The translations under genes were made by a program, and so were the position numbers. Positions 28,167 through 41,153 of a stretch of DNA of 64,000 nt are shown piece after piece. The notes beneath the pieces are model-generated. The model saw nothing but the letters and a program-made list of their open reading frames with translations, was not told the origin of the DNA and searched no databases. This DNA comes from Paragemmobacter ruber (GTDB taxonomy: Bacteria; Pseudomonadota; Alphaproteobacteria; Rhodobacterales; Rhodobacteraceae): the NCBI RefSeq assembly GCF_009908315.1, contig NZ_JAAATW010000001.1:124001-188000 (forward strand), given 5' to 3'. Numbering within the stretch: position 1 is the first letter of the stretch; every line of letters begins with the position of its first letter.

Positions 28167-28212
28167 TGGTGCCGCTGAAGGGACTCGAACCCCCGACCCC
28201 ATCATTACGAAT
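28167..28212 (-). pseudogene. 3' half of the disrupted host tRNA-Thr(CGT) (left attachment site)
   Basis: Read leftward, this is the anticodon-loop-to-CCA half of a tRNA: T-arm, acceptor 3' strand CAGCGGC, discriminator A and encoded CCA at 28167-28169. It breaks off at TTACGAAT (28205-28212). A 37-bp block (28176-28212) is identical to 40952-40988 in the intact tRNA. Its acceptor strand pairs 7/7 with the 5' half at 41116-41153, not with the intact copy, which shows that the two halves were once one gene. Confidence 0.9.
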
Positions 28213-28899
28213 TGTTTTCCTAAGCAATATCAATATATTGGAGCTCGACTGACAGCGTTGCAGCAACCATCATAACGCATTGGCAGGCCTCGTCTTTCCC
28301 GAACTCAAGTCTCGCAGACCGTTGGACGCCACCGGGCCACACCTTATGGCGCTTTCGTACTATGGCCCTACAGATTTTCGTTTGCCCTACTAAATCGCGA
28401 TTGCACGGAACCATCATCAGTCGCTTGCCGAGGCGAGCCGGTTTGGCACCCTCCTACCCTGCCTTGCCCCCCACCGCACCCCATCAACGGGCCGTCCAGA
28501 ACCCAGCTGGCAGGCCGCTCTCCAGTTGACCCCTCTCTTGAGGTGGCTTGATCCTCGCGTGCGAAACTTCCTTTTTGGCGCTGTTGGTCGCCGCGATGGC
28601 TGCACTGGTTGATCGAGTCGTAGTAGCGACCGGCACTGAGGCCAACACCCTGAAAACGCACAACTTGCACAGGTGACCTCGACTGATGGACAAACTATGT
28701 CTTAAGCCAGTGATCATGCTGTTCAGGGTTCGCATGCGCGCGTTCGACCTACGCATCTACTAGGGGACCACAGCAGTCACTTCATAACGTCAGTGACAGG
28801 GCCACATCGCCTCGATCCAGCAAGCGAGTGCAATTTACAGTGTCCCACGCTCCCTGCTACACAAGATGCAGAAAAAACTTGAAGAATCAGGAGGGCGGT
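28213..28899. other. Left-end non-coding region of the element
   Basis: About 690 bp between the left core and dndC without a convincing gene. Short open frames here (for example 28368-28670 on the minus strand) have no recognisable domain and no good ribosome site. It holds the left arm-type repeats and presumably the dnd promoter. The ribosome site AGGAGGG at 28889-28895 belongs to dndC. Confidence 0.6.
28359..28393. repeat. Left arm-type repeats of the integrase
   Basis: ACTATGGCCCTAC at 28359-28371 is identical to 41040-41052 near the right end, and a variant TTGCCCTACTAA follows at 28382-28393. They lie ~150-180 bp inside the left core. Tyrosine integrases bind such short direct repeats on both sides of attP; binding is inferred. 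Confidence 0.65.
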
Positions 28900-30060
28900 A
28901 TGGGGCTGGACAACGCTTCGACCATGGAGCGTACGAAAGACAGCGCTGCGATAATCGCTGCTATTCGCGCTGACATGCTCGACGAATACCGCCAGCCTCA
29001 CAGCTACCCGTGGATCATTGGTTATTCCGGGGGCAAAGACAGCACCCTAGTGACCCATCTCGTCTTTGAAATGCTCATGTCGTTACCGCCTAGCCAACGA
29101 ACGAGACAAGTCCACGTCGTTGCAAACGACACTTTGGTCGAAAGTCCGCTCGTCGTGCAGCACCTTGTAGAGAGCGTTTCCGAAATTGAAGAAGCCGCGC
29201 AAGCTTTTGCGCTCCCCCTAGTAACGAAGATAACCCGCCCGGCTCCTGACCAGTCATTCTGGGTAAATGTGATCGGGAGAGGCTACCCTCCGCCTAACCG
29301 CACCTTCCGTTGGTGCACAGACCGGATGAAGATCCAGCCAACCAGTAGGTACATCAAGACAAAGGCCGATGAAGAGGGACAAGTTATTCTTCTCCTTGGG
29401 GTACGGCGCTCGGAAAGCGCGACACGGGCAGCATCCGTTGGGCGCTATGACAACGGTGAGCGCCTGAACAGGCACAACGATCTCATGGGATGTCTAGTCT
29501 ACCGACCAATTGTTGAGTTGGACACCGAAGATGTTTGGGAGTTTCTTGCGCTTAAGGACCCACCTTGGGGCGGATCGCACTTGAAGCTTATCGGCCTCTA
29601 TCGTGATGCCAGCGGAGGCGAATGTCCAGTCGTCACCCAGAAGTCCGACGCACCGTCGTGCGGCACCACCTCGTCTCGCTTTGGTTGCTGGACCTGTACC
29701 GTAGTGGAGAAGGATCGAAGTCTGGAAGGTTTCGTCGAAGCTGGGTACGCGGAGTTCGGCCCCTTGCTAGATTTCCGGGACTGGCTGGCTTCTATCCGCA
29801 ATGATAGGGACCGCAGACAGGCACGTCGCCGCGATGGTCGGATTACCATCACGGATGGAGGGACGTTCGTCCCCGGTCCCTTCACCTTGAAGGCACGTGC
29901 AGAGATCTTTGAACGCCTGCGTCAGCTAGAGAAGACCACCGGACAAGCCTTGATTAATGAAGAGGAAGTTGGTCTCATACATGAAATATGGGCGCATGAG
30001 ATCGTCGGGCAGACTAAGGCAAAGCCGATGGACGTCCGGGAAATCAAGAAGGGTCGTTGA
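28900..30060 (+). CDS. dndC: DndC-like sulfurtransferase (DNA phosphorothioation)
   Basis: 386 aa from ATG at 28900, with AGGAGGG upstream. It is a PAPS-reductase/ATP-pyrophosphatase family protein: PP-loop SGGKDST at residues 43-49, RWCTDRMKI with Cys139, LLGVRRSESATRA, and GCWTC (Cys263, Cys266), followed by VVEKDRS, typical of DndC. Known DndC carries an Fe-S cluster and activates the DNA backbone for sulfur insertion with DndA/IscS-supplied sulfur. No cysteine desulfurase or dndB is in the element, so a host IscS may serve. At 386 aa it is shorter than the ~500-aa examples I recall. First gene of a tightly packed four-gene operon. Confidence 0.88.
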   Translation: MGLDNASTMERTKDSAAIIAAIRADMLDEYRQPHSYPWIIGYSGGKDSTLVTHLVFEMLMSLPPSQRTRQVHVVANDTLVESPLVVQHLVESVSEIEEAAQAFALPLVTKITRPAPDQSFWVNVIGRGYPPPNRTFRWCTDRMKIQPTSRYIKTKADEEGQVILLLGVRRSESATRAASVGRYDNGERLNRHNDLMGCLVYRPIVELDTEDVWEFLALKDPPWGGSHLKLIGLYRDASGGECPVVTQKSDAPSCGTTSSRFGCWTCTVVEKDRSLEGFVEAGYAEFGPLLDFRDWLASIRNDRDRRQARRRDGRITITDGGTFVPGPFTLKARAEIFERLRQLEKTTGQALINEEEVGLIHEIWAHEIVGQTKAKPMDVREIKKGR

Positions 30061-30261
30061 ATGTCGCGGAACGTGGTAGTTTTACTGGATAACCCCGAAG
30101 GTCGCACGCTAGTAAGAGATGCCTGCAGAACGAGCGGAATCCTGTTCTTCGAATTTCAGGAATTGGTACAAGCTGAAATCGAGCAAACTGGCAAGCAGCG
30201 CAAGAAAGGCTTGTGGGATGACTTCGATGATATTCTTGATCGCATCCAGGTGGATGACTGA
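30061..30261 (+). CDS. Small protein encoded between dndC and dndD
   Basis: 66 aa. The ATG directly follows the dndC stop (TGAATG), and the stop is 5 bp before dndD, so the gene is embedded in the operon and very probably translated. It has a hydrophobic N-terminal strand (MSRNVVVLLD), a central FFEFQELVQAEIEQ amphipathic helix, a basic GKQRKKG stretch and an acidic tail ending DDFDDILDRIQVDD. It is too short for an enzyme. I recall that small proteins are annotated as associated with DNA-modification operons in similar positions, but no function is established here. Confidence 0.75.
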   Translation: MSRNVVVLLDNPEGRTLVRDACRTSGILFFEFQELVQAEIEQTGKQRKKGLWDDFDDILDRIQVDD

Positions 30262-30266
30262 GACCT

Positions 30267-32351
30267 ATGCACATTTCTCAAATTGTTCTTCGGGACTGGA
30301 AAGCCTACACAACCGCTACATTTGATTTCCCAGCACCTTCAGCTGGCCGCAACATCATTCTTATCGGCGCGCCAAACGGCTACGGCAAGACCAGCCTATT
30401 TGAAGCGATTGTTCTTGGAATGTTTGGGCGCGATGGTCTGCCGCTGATTGCGCGTTCGCCATTCTCGGGGGGGGACAAAGAGCGTCTTGCTACGTCTTAT
30501 AAGGCGTTTCTTGAAAAAGCATTGCACAAGGGCGCAACAGACGCAGGTCGTACGTCCTGTTCTGTAAAGATCACCTTTGTGGATGACGAAGGCGAACATT
30601 TAGAAATTCAACGCATTTGGCACTTCAGCGATAGCGGCGGCTACCGCCCTCTTGATGAAGAAGTTCATATCTTCGAAGGCCCGACCCGAAAGGCTGTTGG
30701 TCCAACGGGCTTGCAGGGCAATGACCGCATGGATTGGTACCGGGACTATATTGCCCGAACTTTCCTGCCATACTATCTTGCATCATTTTTTCTTTTCGAT
30801 GGTGAACAGGTAAGTGCTTTCGCCGAGCGCGAAATGGCTGCACAAGTCCGCACAGGGATTGAAGGTCTATTGGGAATTCCGGTTCTCAAGCAATTGGCAG
30901 AGGACCTACGTGCGTACGCTGCTGTACGGCGGCGTGAGTCGCCTAACGTGTCGGACAAGACCATTGAGAAGCTGGAGCTTGATCGGGATGTTCTCAAGTT
31001 TCAGTATGACGAAAAGCGCAGGCGCTTTGAAGAAATTGAACCTGACCTAGCAAAGCTGAAGGAAGAACGGGACAATCTCACTCGCGAGCTAGCTAGCTTC
31101 GGCGCAGGCTCGCAAGCACAATTGCAAGAACAATTGGAGCAACTCAATCAGTTGCGACGCGCTGTTGAAGCAGGGCGCGCCCAACTTGAAGAATTGATGG
31201 CCAAAGATATCGCGCTAGCTCTTTCCGGCCTTGGCCTCCGGGAAGCGTTAAAGGCTCGTTTAACGAGTGAGACTGTATTGGAGCGCTGGGAAAGCGGAAA
31301 GAAGCAAGGCGACACTAATCTTGAACGGTTTTTGGGGGCCGTTGACAGTGGTATGATGGGCATCGACCCACACTTGACCGAATCACAGCGTAATTCTGTG
31401 CTGACAACCGCTCGAAGTGCGTGGGAGCAGCTTTGGTATCCGCCGCCTGACAACTGCGCCAAATCTTTCCTTCATCCGCATCTAAATGAACTGGAGCGCA
31501 GTAAGGTAATTGATCGGTTGGATGAGCTTGATGAATTGGGTGCACCCGCTATTGTAGAGTTGCTTAATGATATAGCATTCAATGAAGAGGCTCTTGAGCG
31601 ACTGCAGCAAGAAGTCACGCGGACGGAGTCGGTTGCGCCTCATGTGGACAAGAAGCGCGAACGCTTGACGGTTCTGAACGGACAGATTCAGGAACTAGAT
31701 CAGGAAATTGGAGCGCTCAAGCGTGAACTTTCTGCGCTAGAGAGCCAAATCAACCAGAAGAATACGGACCTAACTAAACTAGCCGGGCAGTGGGATCAGG
31801 CAAAGCCATCAATGCGCAGAGCGATGCGCGCGCTCAAAGTTGCCAGTATGGTAGATGATATTGTGTCGCAAGCAGTTCCCAGCCAGATCGACGCTATCGC
31901 AAAGGCTATGTCCGCGGCGCATCGCTCTATGGCGCACAAGAAAGACCTTGTTGAGCGGATTGCCATCGATGAGAATTGCGATGTGCAACTCTTGAACTCA
32001 CAGGGCATCGACGTTCGGCGTTATGATCTTTCCGCAGGCGAAAAGCAGATTTTTACTCAAGCACTGATTTCAGCAGTATCGTCAGTTTCCGGGCGAGGCT
32101 TTCCGATGGTTGTTGATACCCCGTTGGGTCGGCTGGACATTGAGCACCGCAAAGGCGTTCTCAATCATCTGGTGAAGAGGGAGCATCAGGTGATTTTGCT
32201 TTCAACAAATACTGAGGTAGTCGGCGAATACCTGAAGGAAATTGAACAGCACGTGCAGAAGAAGTACCTGATTCATTTTGAGCGCGTGGGCGACATTGGG
32301 CAGTCCACCGTTAAGCCGGGATATTTTGACAATGCGGGGAGCGCGTCATGA
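30267..32351 (+). CDS. dndD: DndD-like SMC/Rad50-type ATPase
   Basis: 694 aa. Walker A GAPNGYGKT is at residues 34-42. A long central region (~220-560) contains two Glu/Lys/Leu-rich coiled-coil stretches. The ABC signature LSAGEKQ is at 588-594 and Walker B MVVDTP at 614-619, followed by GRLD. This is the SMC-like ABC ATPase architecture of DndD, which nicks or remodels DNA for sulfur insertion with DndC and DndE. No CxxC zinc hook is visible at the coiled-coil tip. It overlaps the next gene by 4 bp (ATGA). Codon use is less GC-biased than in the flanks, in line with acquisition. Confidence 0.9.
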   Translation: MHISQIVLRDWKAYTTATFDFPAPSAGRNIILIGAPNGYGKTSLFEAIVLGMFGRDGLPLIARSPFSGGDKERLATSYKAFLEKALHKGATDAGRTSCSVKITFVDDEGEHLEIQRIWHFSDSGGYRPLDEEVHIFEGPTRKAVGPTGLQGNDRMDWYRDYIARTFLPYYLASFFLFDGEQVSAFAEREMAAQVRTGIEGLLGIPVLKQLAEDLRAYAAVRRRESPNVSDKTIEKLELDRDVLKFQYDEKRRRFEEIEPDLAKLKEERDNLTRELASFGAGSQAQLQEQLEQLNQLRRAVEAGRAQLEELMAKDIALALSGLGLREALKARLTSETVLERWESGKKQGDTNLERFLGAVDSGMMGIDPHLTESQRNSVLTTARSAWEQLWYPPPDNCAKSFLHPHLNELERSKVIDRLDELDELGAPAIVELLNDIAFNEEALERLQQEVTRTESVAPHVDKKRERLTVLNGQIQELDQEIGALKRELSALESQINQKNTDLTKLAGQWDQAKPSMRRAMRALKVASMVDDIVSQAVPSQIDAIAKAMSAAHRSMAHKKDLVERIAIDENCDVQLLNSQGIDVRRYDLSAGEKQIFTQALISAVSSVSGRGFPMVVDTPLGRLDIEHRKGVLNHLVKREHQVILLSTNTEVVGEYLKEIEQHVQKKYLIHFERVGDIGQSTVKPGYFDNAGSAS

Positions 32352-33883
32352 GCATTTCCCTCGTTGAAGTGGCCGGAGCAAATTTTCGTACGGATGAGAA
32401 GAGCGACACCCTGAACACCGCATTCATGGGCAGGCTCGGCATGCGCAAGCGCTATCTGCCTGCGCGTCTAGCAATTTCGCGTTCGCTCGCAATGCCTGCC
32501 CCCCCTGAGTTGGCCGATGATGAGTCTGATCCCGGCAAGGCAATTAAGGGCGATACGCTGTTTGGTACTGGAACAACGCTATCGGTCTGGCTGGCGCTGA
32601 TGGTAGAGCGCTCAGCTGACCCTGAACTTGACTTGAAGAAGCTTATTGCTCTCGTTGGAGCTCACTGGAGGCGTGGTCTAAAGCTTCTGGACAGGGAGTG
32701 GGAGCAGGCTGATCAGGATGTCGCAAAGTTCGTCAAGCGGCTAGTGGAGGTCGCAGAGTTGCCTCTGTCCAAGCAGGGGTCCTTGCGTTCCGGCGGTGCA
32801 AGCCAAGGCATGACGTTCTCCAGCGGTCGGATTACCGTTCCGATTGGCGAGATTGCGGAAGACTTTGCAACCAAAGAGAAAATCGTCTGGGATCTCAATG
32901 GTTCTGGCGGCTCCCCGCACAGTGCGATAATGGGAGGCGTGGGGTCGGGCAAGACCAGAACTGCTGTGGCCATGCTTCGCTCGATCCGGCAGCAGGCTTC
33001 TGTCCCGCTGATCGCTTTCGACTTCAAAGGCGACCTTGGCACGGACTCAACCGGTGGAGGCTACCGGATTGACGAGCTCTTCGAAGCGAGGAGCCTTGAG
33101 CCTCCCCGCGCACCAATTCCGCTTGATGTTCTTTCGCTTCGCTCGCGAGGTGAGATTGACGTTGCGGAAGCAGCCTCGCGGTTCCGGGAATCTTTCTCGC
33201 GACTGAAGGGAAGTCGCCTTGGGGATCGTCAGCGGACCGCCTTGCACGAAGCTGCAACGCGGGCGCTTGCTGCCGAAACTCCTTGCGAATTGCACCATAT
33301 CAGGGACGCCCTCGTAAGCGTATATGCTGAACATGAAATGAAGGAAGACGGCGCAATCGCGATGATGCAGGAGCTTTGTCGCTTCCCTCTTTTCGAACCT
33401 ACCTACGATCCGGCATCTTTCTTCCAGCAAAGCTGGATCATTAAGCTGCCGCCGAACGTGGCCGAAGACAGCCGTACAATCGTGGTCAACCTCGTTCTTG
33501 ACGCGCTGGATCAGTACTTGAACAGCCTAGTCGATTCTGAGCGCAGCGCCGATGGATCGCGCGGCCTTCGGGTACTGTGTATGGTAGATGAAGCACATCA
33601 GATACTTGGGTCCAAGCTTCCGTCGTTGGCAAACCTTATCCGCATGAGCCGCTCAAAGGGTGGAGCAATCATGCTAATATCGCAATCTCCAGATGATTTC
33701 TCAGGCGAAGATGATGAGTTCCTCTCTGAAATGGGCCTAGTTGCCGCTTTCGCTACCAACGCGCCGCCCAAGAACGCAACGCGTATTCTTGGAAAGGGCG
33801 CGAATCTCAGCGCACTACAGACAGGTCAGTGCTACGCCAAACGGCGGGGGGATCAGACTGCTAAGCGGATTAAGGCATGGTAG
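32348..33883 (+). CDS. DndE-domain / HerA-FtsK-type ATPase fusion
   Basis: 511 aa, ATGA-coupled to dndD. Residues ~10-130 resemble DndE: RKRYLPARLAISRSLA, a GKAIKGDTLFG turn, and a C-terminal LVGAHWRRGLKLLDREW helix. Known DndE is a free protein of roughly 110-130 aa that binds nicked DNA. The rest (~180-511) is a HerA/FtsK-like motor: Walker A GGVGSGKT at 196-203, Walker B VLCMVDEAH with Asp414-Glu415, and LISQSPDDF resembling a sensor. HerA-like ATPases otherwise occur in the Dnd restriction arm (DptH/DndH). The fusion therefore puts a modification subunit and a motor in one chain. The ATPase part is secure; the DndE part is a recognised resemblance. Confidence 0.8.
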   Translation: MSISLVEVAGANFRTDEKSDTLNTAFMGRLGMRKRYLPARLAISRSLAMPAPPELADDESDPGKAIKGDTLFGTGTTLSVWLALMVERSADPELDLKKLIALVGAHWRRGLKLLDREWEQADQDVAKFVKRLVEVAELPLSKQGSLRSGGASQGMTFSSGRITVPIGEIAEDFATKEKIVWDLNGSGGSPHSAIMGGVGSGKTRTAVAMLRSIRQQASVPLIAFDFKGDLGTDSTGGGYRIDELFEARSLEPPRAPIPLDVLSLRSRGEIDVAEAASRFRESFSRLKGSRLGDRQRTALHEAATRALAAETPCELHHIRDALVSVYAEHEMKEDGAIAMMQELCRFPLFEPTYDPASFFQQSWIIKLPPNVAEDSRTIVVNLVLDALDQYLNSLVDSERSADGSRGLRVLCMVDEAHQILGSKLPSLANLIRMSRSKGGAIMLISQSPDDFSGEDDEFLSEMGLVAAFATNAPPKNATRILGKGANLSALQTGQCYAKRRGDQTAKRIKAW

Positions 33884-33893
33884 GGCTACGAGA

Positions 33894-34958
33894 TTAGCTC
33901 TTTGGCCTGTCGATCCTGATCGCCTGCCAGACTATATGGCTTCGACCCAGTAGGTCGCTCTGCGAGGCAAGTGACTTTACAGGGATCGACAGGTTGGAAG
34001 CAAGGCGGCGGAAATCTTCCAGTGACACGCTGTGGATTCCCCTGCTTGGCTCTTCAGGACCAATGCGCAAGGTGAGATAGGCTGTTCCTCCGGGAAGCAG
34101 CAGGCCGTAGACGGAGGTAAGTGCCTTAGCTCTATCTTCCTCTGGCAAGTGCATCCAAACAGCGCTCAGAATGACAAGGTCGAAGCGTTTTCCCGTCGCA
34201 TGGATCTCGTCCAACGTGGGCAGGGTGTCGAAGACCCAAGAAATTCCTTCGTCGCTATGCAATCGCTTGCCGATGGCCTGCATTGCTTCGGAGGGTTCTA
34301 CCGCAACGACCCGGTGGCCCCGATGCGCTAGCCAAGCTGCGTCTCTACCTGTACCTGCGCCAACATCCAGTATGTCCAAGACAGACCCAGCGCGCTCCGT
34401 CATAAGGATCCTGACAAGGTCGGGATGGGCATCTTCGAAGGCCAACGCTTCGTAGCCGTCTGCCAAATCTGCTGCATGGCGACGATAAAATGATAGTGCG
34501 TCGCTCTCTGGCTTAGGTCTCAGAACAGCCTCCCAATCGGCTTGCGATGCAGATACATAGAGCAACCCAAAGCTTACAGCCGCAGCAAGTCCTAGCATGC
34601 CCTGAAAGGCATAGCGCACGACATATTGTCGGTTGAATGGGTTTGTGCCCTCCGCCACAACAGCACCGTCCGGGTGCTTGTCTCTCAGCCAGTCTAGGTA
34701 CAAGCCCATGACATACCGAAGACGATAGAGCACTACGATCAATGCAATGTTAGCTAAGCCCGCAAGAAGTAGCAGGGCCATCGTGAAGAGAGCATAATCT
34801 TCGGTTCGCGATACGCCAAACCAAAGGCCACCTGTCAGCGTCATAGCGATCAACGGAATCTGCCACATTTGCTGGTTGAGCGACCTGAAGGCCTCGTGGT
34901 TCTGGTTGAACGCAGCTAGCCGAAACTCTTGGTCTTCAGTTGGTTCAGTCTGCAACAC
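33894..34958 (-). CDS. Membrane-anchored class I SAM-dependent methyltransferase
   Basis: 354 aa from GTG at 34958. The N-terminal ~165 residues contain three hydrophobic helices (about 33-48, 55-78 and 115-135) separated by a charged loop. The C-terminal part (~165-354) is a Rossmann methyltransferase: motif I LDVGAGTGRDAAWLA, an acidic VVAVEPSEAM strand end, and DLVILSAVWMHLP. It resembles small-molecule or lipid/quinone methyltransferases more than DNA methylases, since no DPPY or PC motif is present. It converges on the dnd-like operon with a 10-bp gap. Its role in the element is unknown; a membrane effector or accessory modification enzyme is possible. Confidence 0.8.
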   Translation of the reverse strand: MLQTEPTEDQEFRLAAFNQNHEAFRSLNQQMWQIPLIAMTLTGGLWFGVSRTEDYALFTMALLLLAGLANIALIVVLYRLRYVMGLYLDWLRDKHPDGAVVAEGTNPFNRQYVVRYAFQGMLGLAAAVSFGLLYVSASQADWEAVLRPKPESDALSFYRRHAADLADGYEALAFEDAHPDLVRILMTERAGSVLDILDVGAGTGRDAAWLAHRGHRVVAVEPSEAMQAIGKRLHSDEGISWVFDTLPTLDEIHATGKRFDLVILSAVWMHLPEEDRAKALTSVYGLLLPGGTAYLTLRIGPEEPSRGIHSVSLEDFRRLASNLSIPVKSLASQSDLLGRSHIVWQAIRIDRPKS

Positions 34959-35274
34959 GATCTCCGTCTAAGGAAAACTGTACTCGGACGGTCAACTTAA
35001 CTGATCAGCCGCTTTTCGTCGATGACTGGCTTCGACCACAAACGAGTGCGCCACCTAGAGTACCGGCGAGTTCGTCCATTTTTGTTCGCAAATCGAAGCT
35101 GTCGGTAGGACAGCCCGGCATTCCCTCGCAAGAGCTTCAGCACCATCTCATAGACTGCACTTCACGACGTTGCAGACGGCTTCACGAGGCTGGACAAAAC
35201 ACACAAACATCTGATTTTGCTTGCATTTTTGCGATCTTTTGGCGAGGATGAGCTGAGGCCAAAAGGAGGTCTCA
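34959..35274. other. Intergenic region between methyltransferase and integrase
   Basis: 316 bp with divergent start sites. It should contain promoters for the leftward methyltransferase and the rightward integrase module. A strong ribosome site AAAAGGAGGT at 35261-35270 precedes the integrase ATG. A 103-codon frame (34940-35251) overlaps the methyltransferase start and has no domain or ribosome site, so it is not called. Confidence 0.6.
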
Positions 35275-36435
35275 ATGCCAAGCCTGCGACTTACACGCCG
35301 TCAAATTGATGAACTACCGCACCCTGAGGCGGGTCAGGTCTACTACCGCGACACAGCGCTGCCGGGCTTTGGCCTCCGTGTGGGATCGCGAACTAAGATG
35401 TACTTTGCAGAAGGCCAAGTGCATGGCCGAACGCGCCGGGTCACAATCGGTCGTGCCGACGTGTTCGCACCAGAGGTTGCTCGGAAACGGGCTTTGGCCC
35501 TGCTTGCTGAAATGTCCGAGGGACAAGACCCTAATGAACAGAAGCGGAAGGCCCGGACAGAACAGATCACGCTTGCCACTGCGTTCACGAATTTCTTCGA
35601 AGCCCGTACGAACCTTTCGCCCTACACGGTCGGGAGCTACCAGCGGAGCGCGAGGCTCTATCTTAAGTCTTGGCAGAAGACGGCGCTGACCATGATCACC
35701 CGGCAAATGGTGCTGAAGCGGCACCAAGAAATCGCCAAGGCGCATGGGGAAACGACCGCGAACAATGTGATGCGCCACCTCCGGTCGGTGTACAACTTCA
35801 TCGCTGCGACCGAAGAAGATTTCCCACCGAACCCCGTCCAAATCTTGTCACAAGCACGCGCTTGGTATCGTGAACGTCGGCGGCAAACGGTGGTGACAGC
35901 CCTTGACCTGCCCATGTGGTGGAAGGCCGTGATGGCCGAGCCGGAGTACTCGCGGGATTTTCTTTTGCTTGCACTTTTCACCGGCATGCGTCGCGGCGAG
36001 TTGTCCAGATTGCGTTGGGAGAACGTTGACCTTAGGGCACGCACCCTGCACTTGCCGACCACAAAGAACGGCGATCCGCTGTCTTTGCCGTTGGCGGGTT
36101 TTCTCGTCGAACTGCTTGAAGCCCGTTCAAAAGCAAGTGGGGGTTCGGAATGGGTCTTCCCCGGCACCGGAAAGGTTGGCCACCTTGTCGAAACGAAGAA
36201 GTTCCTCGCTCGGGTCGGCGCTGGATCGGGGGTCGCCTTCACCATGCACGACCTTCGGCGGACGTTCATTACCATCGCTGAAAGTCTCGATGTGCCCCAT
36301 TACGCGCTGAAGCGCTTGCTCAACCACCGCACCAACGGTGACGTCACTGGGGGCTACATTGTGATTAATGTCGAAAGACTGCGCGATCCGGTCGAAAAGG
36401 TCGCTACTCGCATTCTGGAGCTTGCAAATGTCTGA
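35275..36435 (+). CDS. int: Tyrosine recombinase / integrase
   Basis: 386 aa. An N-terminal arm-binding domain of the DUF4102 type (YYRDTALPGFGLRV, residues ~23-36), a SAM-like core-binding domain (~100-185) and a catalytic domain follow in order. The catalytic set is visible: R239/R240 in TGMRRGEL, a Lys in TTKNGD, H325 and R328 in HDLRRTF, H351 in LNHRTN and nucleophile Y361 in GGYIV. It should recombine the TTACGAAT core in the tRNA-Thr anticodon loop. The gene lies mid-element rather than beside an attachment site, which is uncommon. It overlaps the next gene by 8 bp. Confidence 0.95.
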   Translation: MPSLRLTRRQIDELPHPEAGQVYYRDTALPGFGLRVGSRTKMYFAEGQVHGRTRRVTIGRADVFAPEVARKRALALLAEMSEGQDPNEQKRKARTEQITLATAFTNFFEARTNLSPYTVGSYQRSARLYLKSWQKTALTMITRQMVLKRHQEIAKAHGETTANNVMRHLRSVYNFIAATEEDFPPNPVQILSQARAWYRERRRQTVVTALDLPMWWKAVMAEPEYSRDFLLLALFTGMRRGELSRLRWENVDLRARTLHLPTTKNGDPLSLPLAGFLVELLEARSKASGGSEWVFPGTGKVGHLVETKKFLARVGAGSGVAFTMHDLRRTFITIAESLDVPHYALKRLLNHRTNGDVTGGYIVINVERLRDPVEKVATRILELANV

Positions 36436-37033
36436 GCAGAACGGACCGGACAACATATTTGACGACGCGGTCGTTGCCAATGCCGGGCAAGCATTCGGGG
36501 CCAGTCCCTTCGAACGGCTGCTGCTTGCGATCATTTCTGCCCATCCCGATCAAAGCGGGAAGACTTCAAAGCAGCGGTTGGATGCAGCGATGAAAATGCT
36601 GGTGGGTGAGCGCGCAACTCCGCATCCTGAGCCGGGCAACCGCGATGATCGCGCCTTGATCTGGATGGGTAGTGAGCGCCACATCGACAAAGCCAATAGG
36701 GACATGTACGCGCTCAACCTCCGTATAAAGCCTGACCGGACGGCTACTCCCCCCCGGAAACCTCGCTCTGATCTGGCCCTTGCAGAGGAGGCAGCGGACC
36801 TTTTCTTCGGGCAAGAGAATGCCGAAGCTCGTCACGCGATAGTTAATCGGCTTCGCGAGAAGTTTTCAGGCAGTTACGCCCGGAAGCAGGGCAAGGGACA
36901 CGGTGTGGACTTCGAGGCGACGTACATCTATCGGGCCGTTGAGCACGACTATGTGCAGGAAAGTCTTGAGGCAGAAACGTTGAAACGAGTTTGCGACGCA
37001 CTCGCGGAATGGGGTGTCGCAACCAAACTGTAG
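36428..37033 (+). CDS. Unknown protein of the integrase-primase module
   Basis: 201 aa, ATG at 36428 inside the integrase 3' end, so translationally coupled. No domain is recognised with confidence. It begins with an acidic stretch, then FERLLLAIISAHPDQSGKTS; it has a Pro/Arg-rich linker (PDRTATPPRKPRSD) and a helical C-terminal half with EAADLFFGQENAEARHAIVNRL. Soluble, no signal peptide. Its position between integrase and AlpA-like genes suggests a role in excision, regulation or replication of the element, but nothing in the sequence proves one. Confidence 0.75.
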   Translation: MSEQNGPDNIFDDAVVANAGQAFGASPFERLLLAIISAHPDQSGKTSKQRLDAAMKMLVGERATPHPEPGNRDDRALIWMGSERHIDKANRDMYALNLRIKPDRTATPPRKPRSDLALAEEAADLFFGQENAEARHAIVNRLREKFSGSYARKQGKGHGVDFEATYIYRAVEHDYVQESLEAETLKRVCDALAEWGVATKL

Positions 37034-37126
37034 CGTCGCCTCTGGTTGCGCAAAAAGGCGCAAGTTGTTCGCAACATTACTGTCCGGTTCACTGGCAGCG
37101 TCCTTCCATCTGCAACGGAGGGCAAA

Positions 37127-37351
37127 ATGCCAAACAGATCAACATCGCTGCTTACGACCAAGCAGCTCCCGGAAATCACTGGTCTAAGCGTTAGCTTTTT
37201 CGAGAAGGGTCGCATCTACGGGTACGGCCCACGGTACATCCGTATTCAGTCCGGTGCCAAGGCTGGGAAGGTCCTTTATCGCCGCGAGGACGTGGACAAC
37301 TGGCTCATGGCTCAGTCATGCACGCCGGAGGCAGGTCGCCATGGCCACTGA
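37127..37351 (+). CDS. AlpA/excisionase-like helix-turn-helix protein
   Basis: 74 aa from ATG at 37127, with CGGAGGGC upstream. The MerR/AlpA-type layout is visible: LLTTKQLPEITGLSVSFFEK (helix-turn-helix), YIRIQSG, and KVLYRREDVDNWLMAQS, which is the classic winged end of AlpA-like proteins. Such proteins control integrase expression or act as directionality factors in satellites and islands. Its stop lies 11 bp inside the primase-helicase gene, so both are co-translated. Confidence 0.88.
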   Translation: MPNRSTSLLTTKQLPEITGLSVSFFEKGRIYGYGPRYIRIQSGAKAGKVLYRREDVDNWLMAQSCTPEAGRHGH

Positions 37352-39638
37352 GTTTCAGCCAAACCCCACGAAGGCTGTGCAGTTCTACCGCTGGCTGCAC
37401 CCCGACGGACCACTGCACATCGAGACGATGGCAAGTGTTGGGCCTGCGAAGCCGATTGTCCGTCAGTTCGCGCCGGGAGAAGAAGCCCAAGCCGTCGAGT
37501 TCATTTCGGCGGCAAACAACGATGACTCTCGACGCAATGTCTACTTTTTGTCGACCGCTAAGTTTCTGAAAGGCTCTCGGAAGAAGGAAAATCTTTCCTT
37601 CGCCCAGACGCTTCATGTTGATCTGGACAACAAGGACTACCCCGGCACAGAAGCGGAGCAGCTTGATAGAATTCTTGCAGTGCTGCTTGATCCAAATGTC
37701 CGACCAAAGGGAGTACCTGAACCCTCGGCCGTGTGGTGCACTGGTGGCGGCTGTCAGGCAATCTGGAAGCTTTCAGAACCCATTGCTGTTGAGGCGGCGG
37801 AGGCACTGAACCTTGCCATTTTGGCAGCAACGCAGGGCGGTCCCGGCACTCACAATGCGGACCGACTTCTCCGTCTGGCTTGGACTATGAACTGGCTGAA
37901 CGACAAGAAACGTGCTGCGGGTCGGCAACCCGCAACGGCATGGCAGGTGCATCCAGTTCGCCTTGACGCACCTCCGAAAACCTATCGCCCCGCCGATTTT
38001 TTGGTGAAGGCACCAAAGTCGAAAGGTACGTCAGAACAGTTAAAGGGTGCTGGACTATCGGGGCCGGAAGAAATCGCGCCACTGCCTCTTTCCTCCAACC
38101 TGATGGAAATTGTGCCGTTTGATCCAAAATGGGTCGACGCCATCATTTCTGGCAAGAACCCACCTCACCACGACTACTCTTCCCGTTCTGAACTCGTACT
38201 TGCCGTATCACTTTGGTTGCTCAGTCAGGGGGTTCTGCCGGGCCACGTGCTGTCGATCATTACTGCACCTGACCTTGGGATTAGCGCCCATGTACGCGAA
38301 AGCCCCGATGTCATGCGCTACGCGCAACGTCAGGTGAAGCGGGCGATGGCGCTTCTTGAGGCACGGCGCGGGGATTGGCCGGTCTTGAACGAAAAGTTAC
38401 AGCCAGTGGCACACCATCCCAAAAACGTGCGCTATGCGCTCGCCCGCCTTGGGGTGGATGCACAGCGTAACCTGTTCAACAAGACTGACGAAGTCAGAGG
38501 GGCGGGGCTTGATGGCCGGGACCTGAACGATATCGCGGAAATTCTCTGTAGTCAGATTGGCCGCGAACTCGACTTCGCGGCAACTCCTGCTGCGATCAAG
38601 AGGGAACTGCTCGCGATTGCCCATGAAAACCCATACCACCCTGTTTACGACTATCTAGACGGGTTGACGTGGGATGGAACGCCAAGGATCGACCGGTGGC
38701 TAGCTACCTATTGCGGTGCCGACGATACGGAACTCAACCGAGAATTTAGTTCCAAGCTGTTGATTGCGGCCGTCCGCCGCATCAAGCAGCCGGGGTGTAA
38801 GTTCGACACGATGTTGGTACTCGAAGGTCCACAGGGTGCCGGGAAGTCGCAGGTCGCCCAACGGCTAGCGGTGCGAGACGAATGGTTCTGCGGCAGCCTT
38901 GACCTCAAGAGTGACGACAAGACCAAGGCCGAGTTGCTGGCGCGTGCGTGGATCGTCGAGTGTCAAGAGTTGGATGGGCTGACCAAGGCAACAAGCCAGA
39001 ACCTCAAACGCTTCCTTAGCACTGCAACCGACAGCTATCGGCGCGCCTATGGCCGCGATGCTGGGGAATACCCCCGACACTGCATTATCCTTGGGACCAC
39101 CAACGAGGGGGCGTATCTGCGCGACCTCACGGGCAACCGTCGGGTCTGGCCGGTGATGGTCGGGCAGATCGACCTTGTCCGCTTTAGCGCCGATCTGGAT
39201 CAACTTTGGGCAGAGGCCGTCGTCCGTGAGCAAGCAGGCGAGAGCATCACGCTATCGCCGCACCTTTGGGCTGCCGCTGCCGAGGCGCAGGGTCAACGAA
39301 TGGTCGGGGACGCGTATGCTGACGTTTTGGAGGACACCTTTGGTGACCTAACAGGCAGGGTATCCATGGACAGCGTGAAGTTTCTGCTGGGCCTTGATAC
39401 GGCACGCATGTCACCCCTCGACACCAAGCGCATAATGGCAGCCATGACCACGCTGGGGTGGGAGTACGGAACCCACCGCCTGCATGACCTTAGCGGAAGG
39501 GTGAAGACCCAAAGGAAAGGTTTTGCGCGCGGCGGCGACGATGATCGGAAACGAGAGTTCATCGCCAAACGGATGGACGGCGGGGGAGTAGTCCTTCTTC
39601 CTGTGCGTGGCGCGTCCGACGATGAGCCGCCATTTTGA
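37341..39638 (+). CDS. Primase-helicase of the VapE / RepB-primase type
   Basis: 765 aa from ATG at 37341. The N-terminal ~230 residues look like an archaeo-eukaryotic-type primase of mobile elements: LSFAQTLHVDLDNKD acidic strand, WCTGGGCQAIWKL, and NADRLLRLAWTMN. A PriCT-like region follows (~290-370). The C-terminal half is a VapE/P4-type SF3-like helicase: DGLTWDGTPRIDRWL, Walker A GPQGAGKS at 496-503, AWIVECQELDGLTKA, and ILGTTNEGAYLRDLTGNRRVWPV. It should replicate the excised element, as in phage satellites and pathogenicity islands. It ends before a strong terminator. Confidence 0.92.
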   Translation: MATEFQPNPTKAVQFYRWLHPDGPLHIETMASVGPAKPIVRQFAPGEEAQAVEFISAANNDDSRRNVYFLSTAKFLKGSRKKENLSFAQTLHVDLDNKDYPGTEAEQLDRILAVLLDPNVRPKGVPEPSAVWCTGGGCQAIWKLSEPIAVEAAEALNLAILAATQGGPGTHNADRLLRLAWTMNWLNDKKRAAGRQPATAWQVHPVRLDAPPKTYRPADFLVKAPKSKGTSEQLKGAGLSGPEEIAPLPLSSNLMEIVPFDPKWVDAIISGKNPPHHDYSSRSELVLAVSLWLLSQGVLPGHVLSIITAPDLGISAHVRESPDVMRYAQRQVKRAMALLEARRGDWPVLNEKLQPVAHHPKNVRYALARLGVDAQRNLFNKTDEVRGAGLDGRDLNDIAEILCSQIGRELDFAATPAAIKRELLAIAHENPYHPVYDYLDGLTWDGTPRIDRWLATYCGADDTELNREFSSKLLIAAVRRIKQPGCKFDTMLVLEGPQGAGKSQVAQRLAVRDEWFCGSLDLKSDDKTKAELLARAWIVECQELDGLTKATSQNLKRFLSTATDSYRRAYGRDAGEYPRHCIILGTTNEGAYLRDLTGNRRVWPVMVGQIDLVRFSADLDQLWAEAVVREQAGESITLSPHLWAAAAEAQGQRMVGDAYADVLEDTFGDLTGRVSMDSVKFLLGLDTARMSPLDTKRIMAAMTTLGWEYGTHRLHDLSGRVKTQRKGFARGGDDDRKREFIAKRMDGGGVVLLPVRGASDDEPPF

Positions 39639-39690
39639 TTGCCCGTTTCAAGTGCCGTAACCGGTAACGTAACCCAAGGGGTAAAAGAAA

Positions 39691-39725
39691 TGTGCGGGGC
39701 GCTGCTGTGCCCCGCACAGTTTTTT
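39691..39725 (+). terminator. Rho-independent terminator after the primase-helicase gene
   Basis: Perfect 10-bp stem TGTGCGGGGC / GCCCCGCACA with an 8-nt loop, followed by a run of six T at 39720-39725. It closes the integrase-to-primase operon. The remaining ~200 bp to the next gene show nothing recognisable. Confidence 0.92.
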
Positions 39726-39926
39726 GCTCTGCAACCTTTCGAACAAAGTTACGGTTACAAGTTACAAAACCATTCAAAATCATATACTTAGATCAAGCGC
39801 CGCTTGAAAGCGCCTGCTGCGCCGTTAAGGCGTGTGCTGGGCCAGCCTACAACGTATACCCAGCGGCCCTTTAACGCCCCCTGTATGGGCCGCTGCGCGC
39901 GCCGTAGGTGGATGCAACGTGCAGGG

Positions 39927-40601
39927 CTAGCCTTCAACCTTCAGTTCCAGCGTCCGCCATCCACCGCTTTCTGGGAAATACTGCACTTTTCCTTCGAAGG
40001 TGGTGCGCAGCATTGCCCCGAACCCGTTTTGAGCGTCCACCTTGCCGAACACTTGGTAGATGCAGTCACCGAGGTGCCTCGTGCCCGGCTCATATCTGCC
40101 GGGAAAATCCGCCGTCGATGGTGCGCGTAACTGCTCGCGTACTTCGTTTTGGAGCATCACGTATGCCAGCCCTGCTTTGTCGTCGGTGCACTCGGCTAGG
40201 TAGGCACCCGTCGCGGTGTTCTGGCGTCGCTTCGCTTCGACCTCGTATTCCTCGGGGCGGAGTTCCTTCAGCGCGTTCAGCCACCGGACTTCGTCTTGGC
40301 TACGCAAAGTGGTGAGATACGCTTCGACGTCGGTGGCGCGCAGATTGGCCAACTCAGCTTCCTGATGGGCTTGGATCTTCGGCCCCATGAAGATGGCCGC
40401 GCCAAAGCATACAAACATGACCATGAATGCCTTGAAGCGCCCAGTAATGCGGGGCGGCTTCCAACCGAAAAGCAAGCAGAGCGTCGCCACCACGAAGATG
40501 CCGAACGTTGTCCACATGGCGACTTCAACATGGGCATAGGTGAGGATGACCAAAAGCACCGTAAGCGCGGTCAACTCCAAGTAGGCAATCAAGAAATGCA
40601 T
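39927..40601 (-). CDS. Three-helix membrane protein with a soluble C-terminal domain
   Basis: 224 aa from ATG at 40601, with GGAGA upstream. Helices span about residues 3-22, 27-45 and 57-75, followed by a charged helical linker (~78-125). The C-terminal domain contains QNEVREQLRAPSTADFP and a VDAQNGFGAMLRTTFEG beta-rich block, ending with strand repeats. A similar soluble domain occurs in phage- and island-encoded envelope proteins; no enzymatic motif is seen. It diverges from the C-protein-like gene, with one GACT-N3-AGTC box 22 bp before its start, so it is probably co-regulated. Function unknown; exclusion or envelope defence is a guess. Confidence 0.75.
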   Translation of the reverse strand: MHFLIAYLELTALTVLLVILTYAHVEVAMWTTFGIFVVATLCLLFGWKPPRITGRFKAFMVMFVCFGAAIFMGPKIQAHQEAELANLRATDVEAYLTTLRSQDEVRWLNALKELRPEEYEVEAKRRQNTATGAYLAECTDDKAGLAYVMLQNEVREQLRAPSTADFPGRYEPGTRHLGDCIYQVFGKVDAQNGFGAMLRTTFEGKVQYFPESGGWRTLELKVEG

Positions 40602-40622
40602 CGGAAAGTCTCCACAAAACCG

Positions 40623-40696
40623 AGACTTATAGTCTGCACACGCCAAAGCAGAGCGACAATAGAAAATGAGACTCATAGTCTGTAGATCAATAGTCT
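40623..40696. promoter_or_regulatory. Three C-box-like operators (AGACT-N3-AGTCT)
   Basis: Thirteen-bp dyads lie at 40623-40635 (AGACTTATAGTCT), 40669-40681 (AGACTCATAGTCT) and 40684-40696 (AGATCAATAGTCT, one half-site degenerate). The latter two are 15 bp apart, just upstream of the regulator gene, like paired left and right operators of restriction-modification controller proteins. The first is close to the membrane-protein start. Confidence 0.8.
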
Positions 40697-40717
40697 ACAG
40701 CATTGCGCTATGGCCGT

Positions 40718-40936
40718 ATGAACATAAAGGCGGTCGTGGGCAAGAACGTGAGGCGGTATCGGGAGCTGAAAGGCATCTCACAGGAAGAACTTGCCTTCGA
40801 CGCTGAATTGCACCGCACCTATGTCAGCGGAGTTGAACGCGGGGTGCGCAACCCCACCGTTCTTATCGTAGGCCAACTAGCCAATGCGCTTGGCGTTGCG
40901 CCTTGCAAGCTGTTGGAATTTCATGAGAAATCTTGA
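40718..40936 (+). CDS. C-protein-like XRE-family controller
   Basis: 72 aa from ATG at 40718. It is a single helix-turn-helix domain: VGKNVRRYRELKGISQEELA, then LHRTYVSGVERGVRNPT, then LANALGVAPCKLLEF. Length and the RTY-SG-ER-RNPT recognition helix match controller (C) proteins of type II restriction-modification systems, which bind GACT-N3-AGTC boxes. Such boxes lie directly upstream, supporting autoregulation. No restriction or methylase gene accompanies it; the neighbour is a divergent membrane-protein gene. It may be a repurposed controller timing expression after element entry. Confidence 0.88.
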   Translation: MNIKAVVGKNVRRYRELKGISQEELAFDAELHRTYVSGVERGVRNPTVLIVGQLANALGVAPCKLLEFHEKS

Positions 40937-40942
40937 GAAGGA

Positions 40943-41018
40943 TGGTGCCGGTGAAGGGACTCGAACCCCCGACCCCATCATTACGAATGACGTGCTCTAC
41001 CAGCTGAGCTACACCGGC
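40943..41018 (-). tRNA. tRNA-Thr(CGT), intact copy carried by the element
   Basis: 76 nt with encoded CCA (40943-40945). The acceptor stem GCCGGTG/CACCGGC pairs 7/7; the D-arm, the anticodon loop TTCGTAA with anticodon CGT, and the T-arm GGGGGTTCGAGTCCC are all intact. It differs from the two disrupted host halves only at one acceptor base pair (G-C in place of C-G), a compensated change. It lies inside the element between the controller gene and the right arm repeats, so it travels with the element and can replace the host gene broken by insertion. Confidence 0.95.
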
Positions 41019-41055: not shown

Positions 41056-41115
41056 CAATACAACCCCCGATCTAACTACTTGGCTTTACACGTCTTTCAC
41101 GAGCGGACCCGCTAC

Positions 41116-41153
41116 TTACGAATGACGTGCTCTACCAGCTGAGCTACAGCGGC
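41116..41153 (-). pseudogene. 5' half of the disrupted host tRNA-Thr(CGT) (right attachment site)
   Basis: Read leftward, this is the 5' acceptor strand GCCGCTG, D-arm and anticodon stem to TTACGAAT (41116-41123), where homology ends. It differs from the intact copy by one base of 38. Its acceptor strand is complementary to CAGCGGC at 28171-28177, joining the two halves as the original gene. Confidence 0.9.

What the first reader, a model, noticed from the sequence alone, without database searches (positions are those of the whole stretch)
28900..33883. Compact Dnd-like operon with a DndE domain fused to a HerA/FtsK ATPase
The operon is dndC, a 66-aa gene, dndD, then a 511-aa protein whose first ~130 residues resemble DndE and whose remainder is a HerA-type motor (Walker A 196-203, Asp414-Glu415). 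DndA, DndB and the DndFGH restriction set are absent. Known DndE is a stand-alone DNA-binding protein, and HerA-like motors belong to the restriction side. The fusion may couple modification to DNA sensing or restriction in one complex, a compact variant of phosphorothioate defence.
Basis: partly seen in the sequence, partly recalled or inferred. Interest (0 to 1): 0.72.

Follow-up and report, generated by a model that had tools for sequence, protein, structure and literature searches.

The report
Sulfur-marking DNA operon with built-in motor
A mobile island carries four genes predicted to put sulfur into the DNA backbone, with the DNA-binding part welded to a DNA-pumping motor and the sulfur enzyme split in two; the weld is already in print, but the split and the stand-alone habit look new and can be tested.

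Summary
Window 28900-33883 encodes dndC, a 66-aa gene, dndD and a 511-aa protein whose DndE domain (best solved matches: DndE crystals) is joined by a flexible linker to a motor whose best solved match is the DndH C-terminal ATPase. The fusion itself is not new: Rakesh, Aravind and Krishnan (PMC10853773) report DndE fused to HerA/FtsK beside a DndD-related ATPase. My paper searches found no experiment on it. Apparently new, within those searches: (1) the 66-aa protein is homologous to the C-terminal domain of full-length DndC that docks on DndD, and the operon's DndC stops just before it, so DndC is split. (2) All modules are found in 42 of 45 relatives with upstream room; in 32 of 32 carrier genomes searched the DndE model rings once, in a fusion-length frame, and DptF never. 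(3) No Pfam nuclease family recurs among the flanking ORFs scanned, though four loci carry a nuclease-like ORF. (4) A sister operon uses an FtsK-type motor. Best reading: a self-contained phosphorothioate-modification machine with a built-in translocase, in a 12.8-kb tRNA-Thr island. Sulfur modification, motor action and phage defence are all untested.

The parts
28900..30060 (+). dndC core, 386 aa: PP-loop SGGKDS (43-48), cysteines 139, 242, 254, 263, 266; specificity loop N133-R134-T135; its last residue aligns with E. coli DndC 422, so it lacks the DndD-docking C-terminal domain
   Evidence: TIGR03183 over cut-off; alignment with 9 full-length DndC; loop; AGGAGG-like site upstream
30061..30261 (+). 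66-aa small protein, homologous to the C-terminal, DndD-docking domain of DndC (about E. coli DndC 424-490; L35, E39, K48 align with L458, E462, R471)
   Evidence: published pull-down of L458D/E462A/R471A in PMC12193691
30267..32351 (+). dndD, Rad50/SMC-like ABC ATPase, 694 aa, without the CxC motif
   Evidence: TIGR03185 over cut-off; tree and motif
32348..33883 (+). DndE::HerA fusion, 511 aa
32348..32758 (+). DndE domain, residues 1-137
   Evidence: PF08870 over gathering score; model pLDDT 93.8; 7x4e Z 13.5, 4lrv Z 11.8
32759..32824 (+). linker, residues 138-159, of which 138-151 are below pLDDT 50
32825..33880 (+). HerA/FtsK-class motor closest to the DndH C-domain, residues 160-511
   Evidence: 7es4 Z 36.7, 333 residues, 2.4 A; 7es4_A best by sequence profile
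32933..32956 (+). Walker A GGVGSGKT, residues 196-203
   Evidence: G196, G201, K202, T203 invariant in 48 of 48 fusions
33894..34958 (-). accessory class I SAM methyltransferase with hydrophobic N-terminal stretches (seen by eye), convergent with the operon; homologues sit beside 5 of 37 relatives with 3.5 kb downstream and beside the DndE::FtsK operon L007; not part of the conserved core
35275..36435 (+). tyrosine recombinase of the island
   Evidence: PF00589 over gathering score
28167..28212 (.). left 46-nt repeat of the island (copy of part of tRNA-Thr)
   Evidence: 98% identical to 40943-40988
40943..40988 (.). right 46-nt repeat, within tRNA-Thr 40943-41018 (-)

Best explanation
A compact, self-contained Dnd phosphorothioate (PT) system on a tRNA-Thr island. 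DndC takes sulfur from a host cysteine desulfurase (a SufS-type gene is present) and puts it into the DNA backbone. Its DndD-docking domain is a separate 66-aa subunit that should clip the DndC core to the DndD head. DndD, a Rad50-like ATPase, holds DNA and carries DndE on its coiled coil. DndE is fused to a DndH-type ATPase, expected to form a ring, so a DNA translocase is a fixed part of the modification complex. The motor most likely feeds or scans duplex DNA through the complex to reach target sites, and on unmodified incoming DNA it may block or displace replication and packaging machinery rather than cut. Shown here by computation: gene order, domain identities, the DndC split, conservation of catalytic and motor residues, and the lack of other model-detectable DndE and of DptF in the carriers searched. 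Inferred: PT chemistry, complex assembly, ring and motor role, defence.
For: DndC over its equivalog cut-off with PP-loop and five cysteines shared with 9 of 9 full-length DndCs. SP profile matches 9 of 9 full-length DndCs at residues 405-497, above every other sequence in a set of 778 flanking ORFs (small proteins apart) and 787 reversed sequences, and 0 of the 39 DndC ORFs of these operons; hhalign 92.2%, E 5.7e-7, against 0.1% for DndD. That stretch is E. coli DndC 433-482, predicted to bind the DndD globular domain; L458D/E462A/R471A breaks the pull-down (PMC12193691, section 7), and L458 aligns with L35, invariant in 31 of 31 SPs. DndE fold: 7x4e Z 13.5. Motor: 7es4 DndH C-domain Z 36.7, next VirB4 27.4. 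ATPase residues invariant in 48 of 48. All modules in 42 of 45 relatives with room (40 by tblastn, all in the same order; 2 more by HMM). 32 of 32 carrier genomes have one DndE-model match, in an open frame of at least 514 aa; DptF 0 of 32 (control 2 of 2). IscS plus DndCDE suffices for PT in E. coli (PMC4611135, passages). Sister operons carry DndE fused to an FtsK motor, so coupling to a motor recurs.
Against: No PT measurement for this family turned up in what I could read. The fusion misses the TIGR03184 DndE cut-off. No recurring nuclease family was found in the flanks scanned, so a defence role rests on analogy; a cluster of ORFs of about 160-250 aa that looks GIY-YIG-like by eye occurs in 4 loci beside a DndB-like gene, without Pfam support. 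Two of the 9 full-length DndCs score no better against the SP profile than the best of 2400 shuffled sequences (9.8 and 8.7 against 10.2 bits). The split DndC also lacks the last C-terminal helix, the second DndD contact in the published model. dndD is in two frames or interrupted in some relatives (L012, L021, L034), so the system is not always kept intact. Oligomerisation and translocation of the motor are untested.
Confidence: 0.65

Rival explanations
1. Nuclease-free defence in one complex: PT marks self DNA, and the fused motor acts on unmarked DNA, stripping or stalling replication as reported for PbeABCD, which halts virus replication without cutting.
For: The motor is the DndH type, from a restriction protein; the operon lies in a mobile island; 25 of 37 loci with 3.5 kb downstream have none of the recognised accessory genes; DptF found in 0 of 32 carriers. 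PbeABCD was reported to halt virus replication without cleavage (PMC6459918, passages).
Against: No phage assay; PbeABCD is a different gene set, its ATPase is of the CxC branch (PMC10853773) and the window's is not, and PMC10853773 disputes that it acts without cleavage; a motor alone has no evident way to read PT status.
Confidence: 0.35
2. Modification only: the motor merely speeds scanning for sites, and PT serves gene regulation, redox protection or protection of the island from host nucleases, not defence.
For: No nuclease domain seen in the four genes and no recurring nuclease family in the flanks scanned; the DndCDE core is complete by homology; strong purifying selection.
Against: Patchy spread over Pseudomonadota orders and one Rhodothermota genome, mobile setting and PT-associated accessory genes fit a defence system better.
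Confidence: 0.3
3. Restriction is supplied in trans by an unrelated, PT-sensing nuclease elsewhere in the genome, or by a variable neighbour.
For: Many Dnd neighbourhoods carry varied nucleases (PMC10853773, section 17); an HNH endonuclease gene lies beside the DndE::FtsK operon of L007; 4 loci carry a GIY-YIG-like ORF by eye.
Against: No Pfam family occurred in more than 3 of the 136 flanking ORFs scanned, and no nuclease family was among the 25 of 79 listed. Neither the host genome nor the carriers were scanned for SspE or sulfur-binding-domain nucleases, so this stays open.
Confidence: 0.2
4. The 66-aa protein is an unrelated regulator (as proposed in print for the small disordered PbeB-type protein) whose likeness to DndC is convergent.
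For: Short protein; individual scores are modest (7.5 to 16.0 bits per domain), and two of them lie within the range of shuffled DndC. CxC-system small proteins score poorly (3.5 and -0.7 bits).
Against: All 9 full-length DndCs outrank the other ORFs and reversed sequences at one position, and the DndC of these operons ends right before it; three FtsK-type small proteins hit the DndC model at 383-445 independently, though weakly (E 0.003-0.005).
Confidence: 0.08

Closest known systems
DndE fused to HerA/FtsK beside a DndD-related ABC ATPase (HerA/FtsK 'clade-3' group of Rakesh, Aravind and Krishnan 2024, PMC10853773)
   Same: Same fusion and same neighbour as described in their section 22
   Different: The parts I saw (sections 16, 17, 22, 26, part 1 of 23, and passages) do not mention a split DndC, the small protein as its C-terminal domain, or the stand-alone distribution. 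The supplement was not read. Their tree clade was not re-tested here
Canonical DndABCDE PT modification system (E. coli, Streptomyces)
   Same: DndC catalytic core, DndD without CxC, DndE fold
   Different: DndC split, DndE fused to a motor, no DndA or DndB gene in the operon
DndFGH (DptFGH) restriction system, DndH C-terminal ATPase (PDB 7es4)
   Same: Motor fold: Z 36.7 over 333 residues
   Different: No DptF match in the genome; the DndH model matches only the motor, positions 1347-1648 of 1715; the motor sits on DndE
DndC - small protein - DndD - DndE::FtsK operons (Rhizobium phaseoli L007, Burkholderia glumae L068, Aureimonas L069)
   Same: Same four-gene order, short DndC plus small protein, related DndE
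   Different: Motor is FtsK/SpoIIIE type with an FtsK-alpha domain; a TusA gene follows in L007 and L069
PbeABCD / CxC ABC-ATPase systems
   Same: Small protein next to an ABC ATPase and a DndE-like protein; PADLOC's best label for the ATPase is PbeC
   Different: No CxC motif, separate tree branch; homology of the two kinds of small protein not shown

Membership tests
Dnd PT-modification system | DndC with PP-loop and cysteine set | tested here: met
   TIGR03183 368.4 against 290.4 bits; SGGKDS and five cysteines in 39 of 39 rows (38 distinct: 37 of HerA-type operons and L007) and 9 of 9 full-length DndCs
Dnd PT-modification system | DndC with its C-terminal DndD-docking domain | tested here: met
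   Present, but as a separate 66-aa gene; no match in any of the 39 DndC ORFs of these operons
Dnd PT-modification system | DndD-type ABC ATPase (not CxC) | tested here: met
   TIGR03185 over cut-off; C-x(1,3)-C motif only in the two CxC rows of 39
Dnd PT-modification system | DndE domain | tested here: met
   PF08870 over gathering score; hhalign 99.0%, 97.9% without the closest relative; DndE crystals are the top fold matches
Stand-alone DndE equivalog (TIGR03184) | Score above the equivalog cut-off, free-standing protein | tested here: not met
   21.5 and 24.6 against 71.85 bits; fused to a motor. So it has a DndE domain but is not filed as the stand-alone equivalog
Dnd PT-modification system | Dedicated or housekeeping cysteine desulfurase | tested here: inconclusive
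   No DndA over cut-off; SufS family over cut-off at C3:288174; use by this system unknown
Dnd PT-modification system | PT in genomic DNA | not testable with these tools
   Needs LC-MS or oxidative cleavage
DndFGH restriction system | DptF and full DndH beside the operon or in the genome | tested here: not met
   DptF 0 of 1 own genome and 0 of 32 carriers, control 2 of 2; the only DndH-model match in the own genome is the fusion's motor. DndG not searched
PbeABCD / CxC system | CxC zinc hook in the ABC ATPase | tested here: not met
   No C-x(1,3)-C in the window ATPase; separate branch from two CxC ATPases
PbeABCD / CxC system | PbeA (HKD nuclease with SF2 helicase) | not tested
   No genome search was made for it
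HerA/FtsK motor of the DndH C-domain type | Fold and Walker/Arg/Gln residues | tested here: met
   Z 36.7 to 7es4; K202, T203, D414, E415, R432, R435, Q446 in 48 of 48; arginine-finger and sensor roles are taken from the literature, not tested
Published DndE-HerA/FtsK group (PMC10853773) | DndE and HerA/FtsK in one polypeptide next to a DndD-related ATPase | tested here: met
   against section 22
Published DndE-HerA/FtsK group (PMC10853773) | Motor falls in their HerA/FtsK clade 3 | not tested

The most novel reading that the evidence does not exclude
The four genes alone are a complete, nuclease-free PT defence: one complex both marks self DNA and, through the fused DndH-type ring, pumps or stalls unmarked DNA, with the detached DndC docking subunit acting as a switch that lets the sulfur enzyme leave so that the complex changes from marking to interference.
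Probability: 0.2. Interest if true: 0.85.

Novelty: new variant of a known kind. Interest (0 to 1): 0.5.

Why it matters
Modification (DndCDE) and restriction (DndFGH) are described as separate machines. Here a DndH-type motor is bound covalently to the modification side, and an FtsK motor is in a sister lineage. A four-gene unit without an evident nuclease makes the question of what the motor does directly testable by motor-dead mutants. Reading the small protein as the DndD-docking part of DndC gives a concrete interface to mutate and replaces 'unknown small protein' by a role. The DndC specificity loop (N-R-S/T/N in 36 of 37 distinct DndCs of these operons, the window's included) matches none of the three published patterns, so a new target motif is possible.

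Tried and rejected
PADLOC's best label for the ATPase, PbeC (1057 bits), was rejected as a functional label: no CxC motif and a separate branch from two CxC ATPases. That tree is unrooted (drawn at the midpoint), has only two CxC rows and five long branches.

PADLOC's best hit of the fusion is mad8 (7e-17), ahead of DndH; solved-structure comparison favours DndH. I did not compare with MADS proteins directly.

Homology of the small protein with CxC/PbeB-type small proteins: L070c 3.5 bits, L075c -0.7; others L071d 4.6, L006c 8.8; not shown for the CxC ones.

A recurring nuclease partner: 173 flanking ORFs were listed; 26 were left out by hand and 11 for size, and 136 were scanned with Pfam: no family in more than 3 members; only 25 of 79 families were printed. 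Some of these ORFs in high-GC loci are antisense and spurious. One ORF cluster (L017, L045, L048, L051) looks GIY-YIG-like by eye but had no Pfam match over threshold in the three of four members scanned.

Viral source: one IMG/VR contig (L060), none in the phage collection; the single-protein scan of viral contigs found none. The sigma-70 promoter scan found nothing (0, shuffles 3.5), which is uninformative for this host.

The fold search of the whole fusion tests only the motor, so the DndE domain was modelled and searched alone.

Rows dropped: L028, L030, L037, L056 (short) from the fusion conservation count (48 of 52); L020 from alignments A5 and A9 and L050 from A9, by oversight; L004 from both because the structure tool does not take plasmid records; L059 as a false match; L047 (fragment) from the DndC alignment. 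In one search L030 and L056 were put among the loci with room by hand. Loci with broken genes count there as having the module.

Papers: PMC10853773 sections 16, 17, 22, 26, part 1 of 23, and passages; PMC12193691 sections 7 and 10 and passages; PMC6459918, PMC4611135, PMC12707154, PMC12839542 passages only; others in search listings only. Searches for prior reports. The 2020 ABC-ATPase survey, which I believe from memory to be reference 24 there, is not held, so parts of this may already be in it.
Full report
What is there. Between 28900 and 33883 four genes lie head to tail: dndC (386 aa), a 66-aa gene, dndD (694 aa) and a 511-aa gene whose start overlaps the dndD stop by 4 nt. DndC and DndD pass the NCBIfam equivalog cut-offs. 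The 511-aa protein passes Pfam's gathering score for DndE over residues 25-117 but not the TIGR03184 cut-off. All four genes look to be under purifying selection against the nearest relative, L010 (dN 0.026-0.050, dS 1.5-2.2; dS is near saturation, so ratios are rough).

The fusion. An AlphaFold2 model from 46 sequences has mean pLDDT 86.9, with a low-confidence linker at 138-151. The motor, residues 160-511, matches the DndH C-domain 7es4 at Z 36.7 (333 residues, 2.4 A), well above VirB4 at 27.4; 7es4_A is also the best solved match by sequence profile. The DndE domain modelled alone (pLDDT 93.8) has the DndE crystals 7x4e, 4lrv and 5wtu as best matches (Z 13.5, 11.8, 11.7), then chains of the F relaxosome at 8.9 (I take these to be TraY, which PMC10853773 compares with DndE). 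A profile of 45 such domains matches 12 of 12 stand-alone DndEs (9.0 to 129.5 bits); hhalign gives 99.0%, and 97.9% (E 4e-13) when the closest, L006, is left out. It did not match the one CxC-type DndE tried (L070). K202, T203, D414, E415, R432, R435 and Q446 are invariant in 48 of 48 full-length fusions.

The 66-aa gene. Small proteins of three related DndE::FtsK operons hit the DndC model at positions 383-445 of 447, weakly (E 0.003-0.005), while the window's DndC match ends at model position 363. A profile of 41 small proteins of HerA-type operons matches 8 of 8 full-length DndCs at residues 405-497, and DndDs only below the inclusion threshold. With an E. coli DndC added, 9 of 9 outrank all of 778 flanking ORFs, other than the small proteins themselves, and 787 reversed sequences; none of the 39 DndC ORFs of these operons matches. 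Against this: the best of 2400 shuffled DndCs reached 10.2 bits, so the two weakest full-length DndCs (9.8 and 8.7) are not separated from shuffles on their own. The window's DndC ends at the residue aligned with E. coli 422. Fu et al. (PMC12193691, section 7) predict that E. coli B7A DndC 433-482 binds the DndD globular domain and report that L458D/E462A/R471A breaks the pull-down. The same three residues occur at those numbers in the E. coli DndC used here (strain ST2747) and align with L35, E39 and K48 of the small protein; L35 is invariant in 31 of 31. The small protein is therefore best read as the DndD-docking domain of DndC, encoded apart.

The ATPase. It lacks the CxC hook and lies apart from two CxC ATPases; 21 ATPases of HerA-fusion operons form one group (97/99) and ten canonical DndDs another. 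DndC specificity loops of 37 distinct DndCs of HerA-type operons read N-R-S (23), N-R-T (9, the window's among them), N-R-N (4) and N-Q-S (1) (the printed tally counts the window twice), unlike the three published patterns.

Distribution. One pattern-based scan of the collection of 84,980 species genomes gave 50 loci, of which 49 are relatives (L030 keeps the motor only; L059 is a chance match); this is a lower bound. With one megaplasmid (Methylorubrum extorquens AM1) and one IMG/VR contig this makes 51 relatives: mostly Alphaproteobacteria (21 Rhodobacterales), some Gamma- and Betaproteobacteria and one Rhodothermota genome, two without a listed origin. A draw of 385 genomes of the window's class had 3, the window's own included. 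Of 45 relatives with at least 3.3 kb upstream, 40 show all modules by tblastn, all in order, and two more (L036, L049) have the small protein by HMM; L027, L030 and L056 are incomplete. In 32 of 32 carrier genomes searched (of the 51 relatives) the DndE model rings exactly once, in an open frame of 514 aa or more, i.e. the fusion; a divergent DndE could escape this model, as it does in L068. DptF is found in none of the 32 (2 of 2 positives ring), and a DGQHR (DndB-type) protein in 12, 11 of them over the cut-off. Of 37 loci with 3.5 kb downstream, 25 have none of the recognised accessory genes, 7 have a DGQHR protein of the dnd type, 5 the methyltransferase, 2 a DndB-like protein and 2 a dnd-related methyltransferase.

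A sister operon. Rhizobium phaseoli, Burkholderia glumae and Aureimonas plasmids carry dndC, small protein, dndD and DndE fused to an FtsK/SpoIIIE motor with an FtsK-alpha domain. Pfam's DndE is over its threshold in L007, under it in L069 and not listed in L068, but the DndE profile from this family matches all three at 84-98 bits. Two unlike motors on related DndEs suggest that a motor is needed, or has been swapped.

Mechanism. Shown by computation: modules, split, conservation, distribution. From the literature: IscS with DndCDE suffices for PT in E. coli (PMC4611135, passages); DndE binds the DndD coiled coil (PMC12193691, passages). Inferred: the small protein clips DndC to DndD, the DndE-bound motor pumps duplex DNA through the complex, PT is made with host sulfur (SufS family present), and unmarked DNA may be blocked rather than cut.

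Prior art. [quoted passage not shown] The small protein of CxC systems is there called mostly disordered and a likely negative regulator. In the parts I read it is not equated with the DndC C-terminal domain; the supplement was not read, and the 2020 survey is not held.

Setting. A 46-nt repeat of part of tRNA-Thr at 28167 and 40943 bounds a 12.8-kb island with a tyrosine recombinase and a VapE-domain protein; GC falls from about 0.67 to 0.51-0.58 inside it.

Noticed in passing
window 28167-40988: A 12.8-kb integrative island in tRNA-Thr(cgt), bounded by 46-nt repeats (98%), with a tyrosine recombinase (35275-36435) and a VapE-domain protein (37254-39638); its shape recalls small phage-satellite-like elements.
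   Followed up: partly
window 41106-41153: A second, 90% identical 48-nt copy of part of the tRNA-Thr lies just outside the island and is not called as a tRNA; perhaps a relic of an earlier integration.
   Followed up: no
window 33894-34958 (-): Methyltransferase with hydrophobic N-terminal stretches; homologues lie beside some PT operons, in several together with a DGQHR protein and an about 181-aa hydrophobic protein. It is only 58% identical between the window and L010 although the operon proteins are 92-95% identical, so it was exchanged or evolves fast.
   Followed up: partly
L017 11352-12098, L045 8018-8506, L048 7672-8160, L051 14973-15455: A family of ORFs that looks GIY-YIG-like by eye, each followed at once by a DndB-like gene, near the operon; no Pfam match over threshold in the three scanned. 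A possible variable nuclease partner.
   Followed up: partly
L012, L021, L034, L030, L027: dndD is split into two frames (L012, L021) or interrupted by about 1.4 kb (L034, Xanthomonas); L030 keeps only the start of dndC joined to the motor; L027 lacks the 5' part. Loss of function may be frequent, though draft assembly errors are possible.
   Followed up: partly
L006 5503-16227: Mesorhizobium plasmid with a cysteine desulfurase, a short DndC, a DndD-like ATPase, stand-alone DndE, then a small protein, a second ABC ATPase and another DndE::FtsK fusion: two ABC-DndE pairs with one small protein.
   Followed up: partly
L007 11554-11757 and L069 10587-10823: A TusA-like sulfur carrier gene directly follows the DndE::FtsK gene, a possible extra sulfur relay for PT.
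   Followed up: no
L071 6953-9541: Priestia plasmid with small protein, dndD and a 122-aa protein beside DptFGH, with no dndC annotated in the stretch fetched.
   Followed up: no
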